A DNA stretch of 64,000 nucleotides, from positions 64,001 to 128,000 of the IMG/VR virus record IMGVR_UViG_3300047444_000299, one strand, 5' to 3'. Position 1 is the stretch's first letter, and each line of letters opens with the position of its first letter. The stretch comes from a virus. Below the pieces are notes generated by a model that worked only from the letters and a program-made list of their open reading frames with translations, did no database searches and was not told the DNA's origin. This document shows positions 18,455-22,496 of the stretch, piece after piece. The position numbers and the translations under genes were made by a program.

Positions 18455-18778
18455 TTGAAGAAAACGAAAGCCAAGGCCAAGCCAACAGGCCCGGTAGAAG
18501 ACACAGTGTTCTATACACTGGGTTGGGAGACGGGTGTGGGGGTATTTGTCAGGATGGGTAACAACCCGATGATGCCGCATCAGATGATCATTCGACCGAT
18601 TGCCTGTGTCAGTTCCCAAGATCCGACCAAGCTCTGGAACGACGGCCACCGGGGCGAAATCTCAGTGGGTAGTCGCGACGTGGTACGTTGCTCTGCGGCG
18701 TATGTCTATGGTTGGATCAAAATGCAAGAGACTTTGACTCAATACCGAGCATCAATAAAAGGTAAAAAGAAAGCGTGA
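18455..18778 (+). CDS. Hypothetical protein upstream of rnh (107 aa)
   Basis: Unrecognised. A TTG at 18455 is the likely start because AGAAGGTGG is well spaced for it. The in-frame GTG at 18446 lies inside that ribosome site. Lys-rich N-terminus (KKTKAKAKP) and a folded middle (FYTLGWETGVGVFVRMGNN). It overlaps the RNase H start (GTGA), so the two are coupled. Confidence 0.7.
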   Translation: MKKTKAKAKPTGPVEDTVFYTLGWETGVGVFVRMGNNPMMPHQMIIRPIACVSSQDPTKLWNDGHRGEISVGSRDVVRCSAAYVYGWIKMQETLTQYRASIKGKKKA

Positions 18779-19677
18779 GTTTAGCGGAATTTCTGGGTGA
18801 AGAAGAACGAAAATCTGGTTTGATGATTGTCGATTTCTCCCAAATCATAATCAGTACAATCAACGCGACATTCCGACCAACCGAAGAACTATCAGTTGAT
18901 TTGATACGTCACGTTGCTTTGAACTCGATTCGTTTCAACGTTCTAACCAATAAAGCCATCTACCCAGATATCGTTCTGGCGTGTGACCGTGGGCCATACT
19001 GGCGTAAAGAGATTGCCGAGTATTACAAGGCCCACCGAAAAGACCAACGAGACAATTCCGGTTGGGATTGGAAAGTGATATTTGAAGCGATGAATCAGGT
19101 TCGTGAAGAACTGCATTTGATCTTTCCTTACAGAACCATCCAGATTGCCGGGATTGAAGCGGATGATATCGCCGGGGTTCTGACCCACCAGCTTTGGCAC
19201 AAATATGATCGAATCCTTTTGGTTTCGTCTGATAGTGACTGGGCGCAGTTGTCCAAGTTCAAGAACGTGAAACAATGGTCACCTATCCAGAAGAAATGGG
19301 TTGAACCGAAGCACGGTTCTGCACACTTGCATTTGATGGAAAAGATCATCAAGGGCGACCCAAAGGATTGTATCGCTAGCATCAAATCGGTTGCAGACCA
19401 TTTGATGAATTTCCGGGATACACGCCAAAAGTCGATCTACCAAAAAGAGCTTGACATATGGATGCACGAACCAGTGGAAAACTGGGGCGATGAATTCACC
19501 ATCAAGCGGTTCCACGAAAACCAGAAAATGCTGGATCTGGGGATGATTCCTCAAGAGATTCAGGACAAAATCATGGCCGCATTTGACGAACCCCGCCCTA
19601 ACGGTGCCGGGATCTTTAACTATTTCATCAAACATCGTTTGAAGGAAATGCTAGGCCGCATCGGAGAGTTTGTATGA
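18775..19677 (+). CDS. rnh: RNase H, 5'-3' exonuclease of the FEN family
   Basis: 300 aa, like T4 RNase H (305 aa). Acidic metal-site residues are visible: MIVDFSQ near the N-terminus, CDRGPYWRKEI and YKAHRK, AGIEADDIAG (about residues 125-134) and SSDSDWAQL. It removes RNA primers and flaps from lagging-strand DNA. GTG start overlapping the upstream stop. Lies upstream of rII as part of the replication module. Confidence 0.9.
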   Translation: MSLAEFLGEEERKSGLMIVDFSQIIISTINATFRPTEELSVDLIRHVALNSIRFNVLTNKAIYPDIVLACDRGPYWRKEIAEYYKAHRKDQRDNSGWDWKVIFEAMNQVREELHLIFPYRTIQIAGIEADDIAGVLTHQLWHKYDRILLVSSDSDWAQLSKFKNVKQWSPIQKKWVEPKHGSAHLHLMEKIIKGDPKDCIASIKSVADHLMNFRDTRQKSIYQKELDIWMHEPVENWGDEFTIKRFHENQKMLDLGMIPQEIQDKIMAAFDEPRPNGAGIFNYFIKHRLKEMLGRIGEFV

Positions 19678-20264
19678 GCTATACACAGTTGGAAGCCGCA
19701 TTTGTTAAACAGCTTGATTGGGCTAATCGCGAACTTCGCACCACCGAACAATGGTGGGATGATGTATCCAACGATCCAGAAAAATTGATTCTCTGGCTCA
19801 AGGATCAATTCTACGGTGAACAAACGGCTGCGGCTCGAATTCGCGGCCTTCTGGATCAATACCCGGACATTACCAAGACCGAAAGAGAATTGGTGACCAT
19901 GATTGCCGACGATGAAGACAAGCACGCCGAATGGGTGAAAGGTCTTCTGATCGCCCGTGGTATTCCGGTTACCTATTTCCGTGAAAAGAGCGTTCGGTAT
20001 TGGGATAAAACCCTACCGAAAGGTGATGCAACCTTCTCCCAGATGTGCGCAATCGGTCACCATGCCGAAGTGATGCGACTGGAAAGGATCAAATTGCTGG
20101 CTCAGGATGGGCGGTTTGATGATATTGCCAGAGTATTTGGTAAGATCCTCCCGGACGAAGAATTCCATACCAAAGCATTCAAGGTGATGTCAACCCCGGA
20201 AGACATCGCAGCCGCGTTGCCTGCCCATCAAGAAGGCATGAACGCCTTGGGTCTGGTAGCGTAA
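19674..20264 (+). CDS. Ferritin-like diiron-carboxylate protein
   Basis: 196 aa, not recognised as a standard T4 gene. The sequence shows the full ferritin-like diiron pattern: E49, then E81xxH84, then E132, then E162xxH165, each on a predicted helix. This is the E...ExxH...E...ExxH arrangement of four-helix-bundle oxygenases, oxidases and ferritins. It is coupled to rnh (ATGA) and lies before rIIA. It could hydroxylate a nucleotide, RNA or protein, or handle iron or peroxide; the substrate is unknown. The 'ferritin-like' call rests only on motif and length. Confidence 0.65.
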   Translation: MSYTQLEAAFVKQLDWANRELRTTEQWWDDVSNDPEKLILWLKDQFYGEQTAAARIRGLLDQYPDITKTERELVTMIADDEDKHAEWVKGLLIARGIPVTYFREKSVRYWDKTLPKGDATFSQMCAIGHHAEVMRLERIKLLAQDGRFDDIARVFGKILPDEEFHTKAFKVMSTPEDIAAALPAHQEGMNALGLVA

Positions 20265-20274
20265 GAAAATTTCG

Positions 20275-20321
20275 AATTCTGGTTTGATTCTGTTTAGGTC
20301 AAACCAGAATTGTGATAGAAT
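20275..20321 (+). promoter_or_regulatory. Class B promoter inside a perfect palindrome (rIIA)
   Basis: Box ATTCTGTTTAGG (20287-20298) and TAGAAT (20316-20321). The 11 nt TTCTGTTTAGG form the loop between perfect 13-bp arms AATTCTGGTTTGA (20275-20287) and TCAAACCAGAATT (20299-20311). It drives rIIA-rIIB. Confidence 0.85.
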
Positions 20322-20354: not shown

Positions 20355-22496
20355 ATGATTGTAACCCAAGGCAGCAACGCAGTCAGTAACATCGAAGACC
20401 GCCACGCATTCACCATCAAAGCTAACGCAAAAGCATTCAAATTGCTTTCGAGCAACCTGTATAGTAACAAACCACTTGCAATCCTACGTGAAATAGGTTG
20501 TAACGCACTCGATTCCCACCAAGCCGCTGGCAAAGCAGACGTACCTTTCAAACTGGTACTACCGTCTGATATGCACCCGTGGCTGGAAATCATAGACTAC
20601 GGTACTGGTCTAGACGACGATCAGGTGAAAAACATATTCACCACTTATTTCGAATCCACCAAAACCACCAGTAACGATTACATTGGTGCGATGGGTCTTG
20701 GATCGAAATCACCGTTTTCGTATACCGATGCGTTCGAAGTCTATGCCCGTCAGAACGGCGTACAGAACACCTATACCTGTTTCTTAAACAAGTCTGGTGC
20801 GCCTGAGCTGTTCCTATTGGAAACGAATTATGATGATCCTGAAAAGGGTATCAAGTTCGAAGACGGCGTGACCATCAAGGTTCCAATCAAGGCAAACGAT
20901 TACGAACTGTTCCGTAAGGCTGCATTACAAGCCTATCGTTTCTTCCCTGTCAAGCCTTTGGTGGGTGTGACTGGTAAAAACTTCCAGTGGGATGAAGTCA
21001 ATTATGGATTTGAAGGAACCAATTTCAAGGTTCTGAAAGGTTCGAAACAGTGTTTCGCGCTGATGGGTCCGGTTGCCTATCCTCTGGATTTGACCCAATT
21101 CACTACAGACGGTTTCATGAAGCGTCATATGGATGCTGATCTGGGTGGGTTTGTGATCGATTTCGGCATTGGTAAGCTGGATGTCAACGCCGGTCGTGAA
21201 GGTCTGTCGTATGACGAAGACACCATTGAAAACCTAATCGAAGGCGTCAAAAACATTCGTGCTGAAATGGCTGCGAAACTAGAAGCCGAGATTGAAGCTT
21301 GCCCGACGATTTATGATGCAATGCGTTATAATGCAGATAAAGACCCAAAAGGTTTGTTCAAACTGCAATATAAAGCAAAAGGTATTGGTAACGTTCTGTA
21401 CTACCGATTTGTTGATGATAAAAACATGGCTGAATGGCAGTGTAAAGAAATCAATTCCCGGTACAAAGAACGCCTGAAAGATGTCAGGGCGCACGAAATC
21501 ACAATTTCCCCGGCGAGCGGTGGTAATTTTGTTCTGATCGACGTTAAACGCAAGTATCAGAAGAAAATTCGCTGGACTTCCGAAAACATGTCGAATACGA
21601 CTTTCCTACAGGCACTGGATAGCGCCGATGGTAAAGATCAATTTGACGATGTGATTGCGAAACTTGAACTGGATGGTACGCCGTACAAATTCATTTCCGA
21701 TATCGTGGATGAATCGCCGGTAATGACCCGTGGGCCTTCTGATCCAACGGTAGCCGCTGCTCGGGCCAAGATTACCTATTCAGGTTTCTATAAGTACCAG
21801 CAAGCCCGTGGGGTGATTGCTGTAGGCCAGCACACCAATACCAATGGTGTTGAACAGGATAACCCGGATACCCTTTACATCAAATGGGATACCAGCGCTA
21901 AGCGCTATCAGTTTGGTAGTAGCATCGTATCTGGTGACGAAATTTCTCCAGTGATCTGGGGCATTATTGATGGAATCATCAAGGATACAGGCCGACCACT
22001 GGTTATTGCTACACAGAAGGTCTACGACAAGATCCCGGAAGACTGGGAAGACATTTCAGAACTGATCCCGGCGAAGCTGGCTGTTGTAATGTCGAAACAA
22101 TCCTTTGTCGAGTCTCAGCACAAATGGGCTTGCACTGGCTTGAATCTTGAACAAGCTAAATATGATGCAGCGGTGAATGACCCACAGGTCAACCCGATGT
22201 TCAAAGAATATTTTGATGCAATTCGCGGTATCACGTTTGGCACCTCGTATGATTACCTGACCATTCAGTTCATTAAGAATGTGTACGGCGATTCGAAAGC
22301 TGCCAATCCGTTTGGTTTTGTCTCGAAATTCGCAAACCATGTTTTCAACCTGCAAATGTTGAAAACACTGGCTAACCGCCACTATAGCAATTGGCCTGAA
22401 ACAGAATTCAAAGAATCTTTGATTGTGTTTAGCTCGATGGTCAAGTGTGGTATTATAGACGAACAAAAGCTGAAAAGCATTCTGATGAAGAAGTGA
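20355..22496 (+). CDS. rIIA: rIIA-like protein with GHKL ATPase domain
   Basis: 713 aa, close to T4 rIIA (725 aa). The N-terminal GHKL ATPase motifs are present: N-box EIGCNALDSHQ (N50, D53), D81YGTG and GAMGLGSKSPFSY. In T4, rIIA and rIIB act at the membrane and protect against RexAB-type abortive infection. Preceded by a class B promoter within a palindrome; overlaps rIIB by one base (TGATG). Confidence 0.9.
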   Translation: MIVTQGSNAVSNIEDRHAFTIKANAKAFKLLSSNLYSNKPLAILREIGCNALDSHQAAGKADVPFKLVLPSDMHPWLEIIDYGTGLDDDQVKNIFTTYFESTKTTSNDYIGAMGLGSKSPFSYTDAFEVYARQNGVQNTYTCFLNKSGAPELFLLETNYDDPEKGIKFEDGVTIKVPIKANDYELFRKAALQAYRFFPVKPLVGVTGKNFQWDEVNYGFEGTNFKVLKGSKQCFALMGPVAYPLDLTQFTTDGFMKRHMDADLGGFVIDFGIGKLDVNAGREGLSYDEDTIENLIEGVKNIRAEMAAKLEAEIEACPTIYDAMRYNADKDPKGLFKLQYKAKGIGNVLYYRFVDDKNMAEWQCKEINSRYKERLKDVRAHEITISPASGGNFVLIDVKRKYQKKIRWTSENMSNTTFLQALDSADGKDQFDDVIAKLELDGTPYKFISDIVDESPVMTRGPSDPTVAAARAKITYSGFYKYQQARGVIAVGQHTNTNGVEQDNPDTLYIKWDTSAKRYQFGSSIVSGDEISPVIWGIIDGIIKDTGRPLVIATQKVYDKIPEDWEDISELIPAKLAVVMSKQSFVESQHKWACTGLNLEQAKYDAAVNDPQVNPMFKEYFDAIRGITFGTSYDYLTIQFIKNVYGDSKAANPFGFVSKFANHVFNLQMLKTLANRHYSNWPETEFKESLIVFSSMVKCGIIDEQKLKSILMKK

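What the first reader, a model, noticed from the sequence alone, without database searches (positions are those of the whole stretch)
19674..20264. Ferritin-like diiron protein between rnh and rIIA
E49, E81xxH84, E132 and E162xxH165 form a complete diiron-carboxylate set in a 196-aa helical protein. I know no such enzyme in the T4 core. It may hydroxylate RNA, DNA bases or a host target, or protect against oxidative defence.
Basis: inference. Interest (0 to 1): 0.75.

Follow-up and report, generated by a model that had tools for sequence, protein, structure and literature searches.

The report
Phage diiron protein resembling tRNA hydroxylase
A T4-like phage carries a small, well-conserved protein predicted to bind two iron atoms; its modelled shape is closest to the bacterial enzyme MiaE, which hydroxylates a modified base in transfer RNA, so it is probably an oxygen-using hydroxylase, but its real target is unknown.

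Summary
The 196-aa ORF is at 19674-20264, between rnh and rIIA. All six proposed ligands (E49, E81, H84, E132, E162, H165) are conserved in a phage family of 13 aligned members: four invariant in 13/13, two in the 12 complete there, although the two main branches share only 20-25% identity. The gene is under purifying selection (dN/dS 0.09-0.16). AlphaFold2 models of both branches (mean pLDDT 88.5, 95.4) are four-helix bundles whose best solved matches are MiaE, the diiron tRNA hydroxylase (Z 17-19 over nearly the whole chain; best non-MiaE 14.2 and 16.1). All six ligands align with MiaE's, as do W27, R95, Y109 and R138. Sequence profiles alone do not choose between MiaE, rubrerythrin and AcsF-like proteins. 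MiaE's own motifs are absent and the phage has no MiaA or MiaB, so it is not filed as MiaE. It is a phage-specific, MiaE-like diiron protein, most likely an O2-dependent hydroxylase, with tRNA the leading but unproven target. Oxidative defence is less likely but not excluded. No close cellular relative was found in a limited scan; some relatives already carry generic ferritin-like or rubrerythrin names. Substrate, metal content and role in infection are untested.

The parts
19674..20264 (+). gene for the 196-aa ferritin-like diiron protein; its ATG overlaps the rnh stop codon
   Evidence: homologues; dN/dS
19818..19820 (+). codon E49, predicted Fe ligand, first bundle helix
   Evidence: invariant 13/13; aligns to Glu of MiaE DHAHCE
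19914..19925 (+). codons E81 to H84 (ExxH), predicted Fe ligands, second bundle helix
   Evidence: invariant 13/13; aligns to MiaE ExxH
20067..20069 (+). codon E132, predicted Fe ligand, third bundle helix
   Evidence: invariant 13/13; aligns to Glu of MiaE EARSxER
20157..20168 (+). codons E162 to H165 (ExxH), predicted Fe ligands, fourth bundle helix
   Evidence: invariant in the 12 members complete there; aligns to MiaE SExxH
18775..19677 (+). neighbour: T4-type RNase H (rnh), upstream
   Evidence: PHROG 107 (exonuclease), 3.3e-59; the same gene in ACP17 is annotated phage ribonuclease H
20355..22496 (+). neighbour: rIIA, downstream
   Evidence: PHROG 612 RIIA, 1.4e-104

Best explanation
The gene encodes a small diiron-carboxylate protein with a MiaE-type four-helix bundle. 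It most likely binds two Fe ions through E49, E81, H84, E132, E162 and H165, activates O2 using electrons from host redox partners, and inserts one oxygen atom into a C-H bond of its substrate, as MiaE does. The leading candidate substrate is a modified nucleoside in tRNA, for example the isopentenyl group of (ms2)i6A37 that host MiaA/MiaB would place on phage or host tRNAs reading UNN codons. Supported by computation: conserved ligand set, fold, nearest structural family. Inferred: iron occupancy, oxygenase rather than peroxidase chemistry, nucleic-acid target. Not tested: any activity, electron donor, timing of expression.
For: Ligand conservation in a divergent phage family. Two AlphaFold2 models from the two main branches (mean pLDDT 88.5 and 95.4; the same ten sequences in both alignments) put MiaE entries first: Z 16.8-18.8 for the top seven entries of the window protein, next 14.2; Z 17.0-18.0 for the top six with the Colossus protein, next 16.1. 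In both the match covers the chain from before the first bundle helix to the C-terminal helix. Aligned with MiaE, the six ligands plus W27, R95, Y109 and R138 are invariant or nearly so in both families. Pfam MiaE scores 24.0 bits, just below its cut-off of 27. The helix-C Arg and the loop Tyr also align to residues in cyanobacterial cyclase-type (AcsF-like) proteins. The genome has 27 ARAGORN tRNA predictions; Trp, Phe, Ser(UGA), Cys, Leu(UAA) and the CUA-anticodon tRNA carry A36-A37-A38, the sequence MiaA acts on (MiaA rule from general knowledge).
Against: Profile comparisons do not prefer MiaE: phage family vs rubrerythrin 95.8%, AcsF-like 94.5%, MiaE 92.9% probability, and the Pfam Rubrerythrin model matches 13/13 members against MiaE 3/13. 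MiaE motifs DHxxCE, EARSxER and C-terminal RFHSG are missing. The genome and four relatives lack MiaA, and the genome lacks MiaB, so the presumed substrate must come from the host. The T4-like carrier ACP17 has only about three predicted tRNAs. Gene neighbours give no consistent tRNA link: rnh/rIIA here, RNase HI in ACP17, seryl-tRNA synthetase only in Brevundimonas phages.
Confidence: 0.4

Rival explanations
1. O2-dependent diiron hydroxylase or oxygenase of another target: a protein side chain, a DNA base or nucleotide, or a small molecule. Same chemistry, different substrate.
For: Fold and ligands are common to many diiron oxygenases. The jumbo-phage branch scores relatively better with AcsF-like proteins. 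Three MiaE-like PDB entries (5ux1, 8fhb, 8fhc) are titled as having aldehyde-deformylating activity, so MiaE-type structure does not fix the substrate. MiaE-specific motifs are missing.
Against: MiaE remains the closest fold for both branches. No neighbouring gene suggests a particular substrate.
Confidence: 0.33
2. Rubrerythrin-like or Dps-like protection: the diiron site reduces peroxide or oxidises Fe(II), shielding phage replication from oxidative stress or an oxidative defence.
For: The Pfam Rubrerythrin model matches all 13 members, and P0001 is above its cut-off. hhalign gives rubrerythrin the highest of three probabilities. A Dps-like protein (PA4880) is the best non-MiaE structural match.
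Against: Pfam PF02915 is broad: its best cyanobacterial matches are about 360-aa cyclase-type proteins. There is no rubredoxin-type Cys4 domain and one cysteine in all. Rubrerythrin has two Glu ligands three residues apart on helix C (general knowledge); in the phmmer alignment only one has a Glu counterpart here, the other faces a His. MiaE matches cover N- and C-terminal segments that Dps matches do not.
Confidence: 0.18
3. Structural or regulatory protein that kept a metal site without catalysis, for example an iron- or oxygen-sensing accessory factor.
For: No function shown; the gene is accessory and in variable positions.
Against: All six ligands survive divergence to about 20% identity, which is unusual unless the metal site is used.
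Confidence: 0.07

Closest known systems
MiaE, tRNA-(ms2io6A)-hydroxylase (PF06175; PDB 2itb, 6zma, 6zmb, 8afj; relatives 5ux1, 8fhb, 8fhc)
   Same: Fold over nearly the whole chain, six ligands in register, W27, R95, Y109, R138
   Different: About 20% identity; below the Pfam cut-off; lacks DHxxCE, EARSxER and C-terminal RFHSG motifs; substrate unknown
Rubrerythrin family (PF02915)
   Same: ExxH diiron bundle; P0001 scores 27.4 bits, above the 22.8 cut-off
   Different: No rubredoxin domain; second helix-C Glu not present; structural matches place MiaE first
Cyclase-type diiron proteins (AcsF-like, about 360 aa, cyanobacteria)
   Same: Ligands plus Asp before each ExxH Glu, helix-C Arg and loop Tyr align
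   Different: Twice the length; identity about 16%; their identity as AcsF is my reading of the sequence, not a curated match
Phage proteins annotated ferritin-like (Caulobacter phage CcrColossus gp256, Brevundimonas phage Domovoi) and the rubrerythrin diiron-binding domain protein of Acidovorax phage ACP17
   Same: Homologous, same ligands
   Different: Named generically; I found no published functional study in the library searched

Membership tests
Ferritin-like diiron-carboxylate superfamily | Four-helix bundle with Glu, ExxH, Glu, ExxH ligands | tested here: met
   geometry inferred, no coordinates
MiaE | MiaE-type fold | tested here: met
   top matches for two models, Z 17-19
MiaE | Pfam MiaE score above curated cut-off | tested here: not met
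   24.0 bits vs 27
MiaE | DHxxCE, EARSxER and C-terminal RFHSG motifs conserved in the MiaE set aligned here | tested here: not met
   the set is ten sequences, mostly cyanobacterial plus Acinetobacter and Salmonella
MiaE | Hydroxylates the isopentenyl group of tRNA (ms2)i6A37 | not testable with these tools
   needs enzyme assay or tRNA LC-MS
Rubrerythrin | Pfam PF02915 score above cut-off | tested here: met
   27.4 vs 22.8 bits, but the model is broad
Rubrerythrin | C-terminal rubredoxin Cys4 domain | tested here: not met
   one Cys in 196 aa
Ferritin/Dps storage proteins | 12- or 24-subunit cage with iron core | not testable with these tools
   no assembly prediction made

The most novel reading that the evidence does not exclude
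Several unrelated large phages encode a diverged MiaE-type enzyme that hydroxylates a modified base on tRNA during infection, tuning decoding by phage or host tRNAs, possibly on a nucleoside other than ms2i6A.
Probability: 0.3. Interest if true: 0.7.

Novelty: new variant of a known kind. Interest (0 to 1): 0.45.

Why it matters
If it hydroxylates tRNA, phages would have an oxygen-dependent way to adjust decoding in the infected cell. If it hydroxylates something else, it would extend the MiaE-type fold to a new substrate. Either way the protein is small and cheap to assay, and generic annotation currently hides the family.

Tried and rejected
PHROGs and NCBIfam gave no useful family. The genome-contig scan with P0001 found no relative; it used short exact peptide patterns, so distant cellular relatives are not excluded. 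No plasmid match. Searching Pseudomonadota genomes failed for want of a centre; only six cyanobacterial genomes were searched with the phage profile, hitting cyclase-type and other diiron proteins weakly. Net charge does not separate MiaE from the others: the phage proteins are acidic, and so is Acinetobacter MiaE. The permutation test of shared columns is biased because the aligner maximises identity, so I do not rely on its p-value. The one apparent true phage MiaE (Acinetobacter phage MD-2021a) lies among bacterial housekeeping genes and looks like mislabelled chromosome. The key MiaE structure paper (PMC7515727) was not held.

Full report
Observation. The ORF at 19674-20264 (+) encodes 196 aa, and its ATG overlaps the rnh stop. 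In 13 aligned phage homologues E49, E81, H84 and E132 are invariant; E162 and H165 are present in all 12 members complete there. The members fall into a T4-like group with the same rnh-gene-rIIA order (L002, L011, L033; L033 has an endonuclease gene in between and was aligned separately), Acidovorax phage ACP17, a 636-kb uncultured phage, and Caulobacter/Brevundimonas jumbo phages plus one uncultured 359-kb virus. Identity to the window protein runs from 72% to about 21%. Four pairs give dN/dS of 0.09-0.16; two further pairs had saturated synonymous sites. The gene is real and maintained.

Fold. AlphaFold2 with ten family sequences gave mean pLDDT 88.5 for the window protein, with the N-terminal 20 residues poorly predicted, and 95.4 for the Colossus homologue. 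Both alignments hold the same ten sequences, so the models are not fully independent. VIA-align ranks MiaE entries first for both: Z 16.8-18.8 versus 14.2 for the next entry, and 17.0-18.0 versus 16.1 (one MiaE-type entry, 8fhb, falls to 14.8 there). Helical bundles score high in general, so the weight lies on the gap, the full-length coverage and the agreement of two branches. Foldseek E-values are weak (best 1.7e-3 and 4.1e-3; in the second list a Dps-like protein ranks first).

Sequence affinity. Pfam gives Rubrerythrin 27.4 bits (above cut-off) and MiaE 24.0 (below). hhalign of the family gives rubrerythrin 95.8%, AcsF-like 94.5% and MiaE 92.9%. Sequence therefore places the family in the superfamily without choosing a branch. 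The joint alignment with MiaE puts all six ligands in register and shares W27, R95, Y109 and R138, but MiaE's DHxxCE, EARSxER and RFHSG motifs are absent. R138 and Y109 also align to residues in the cyclase-type proteins, which I take as mild support for oxygenase over peroxidase chemistry.

Function. [quoted passage not shown] The phage genome has 27 tRNA predictions, six of them with A36-A37-A38, but no MiaA or MiaB, so a host-made substrate would be needed. UNN-reading tRNAs normally carry that sequence, so this is consistent and not diagnostic. ACP17 carries the gene with about three tRNA predictions, which weakens a link to phage tRNAs in particular. I therefore put about 0.4 on a MiaE-like nucleic-acid hydroxylase with tRNA as leading target, 0.33 on another oxygenase target, 0.18 on oxidative protection.

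Novelty. Homologues already have names such as ferritin-like or rubrerythrin diiron-binding domain protein. I found no functional study in the papers searched, which hold open-licence PMC papers only. I rate it a new variant of a known kind.

Noticed in passing
window 20275-20311: Strong stem-loop (13-bp inverted repeat, z -5) between this gene and rIIA. L002 has a paired change that keeps the stem, and L011 and L033 have a different hairpin near the same place. No T-run follows in the window; role unknown.
   Followed up: partly
L033:2412-2990: HNH endonuclease gene (PHROG 953, 3.1e-63) inserted between rnh and the ferritin-like gene in one relative.
   Followed up: partly
L005:3418-3420: In-frame TAA in the LR756504 homologue just before the last ExxH; the frame stays open after it. 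Tables 11, 4 and 15 all stop there; decay, sequencing error or recoding not separated.
   Followed up: partly
G000 bases 153274-173090 (outside the window): Cluster of tRNA predictions including a CUA-anticodon tRNA and a candidate with a four-base anticodon CGAA.
   Followed up: no
L007, L021, L022: A seryl-tRNA synthetase gene lies two genes downstream of the homologue in three Brevundimonas phages.
   Followed up: no
L115 (CAKLQF020000007.1): Record labelled Acinetobacter phage carries rnc, era, recO, pdxJ and a putative tRNA hydroxylase in what looks like bacterial chromosome order; probably mislabelled.
   Followed up: no
L153 (Acidovorax phage ACP17): QueD, QueE and GTP cyclohydrolase genes annotated in a T4-like phage, suggesting 7-deazaguanine chemistry.
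   Followed up: no
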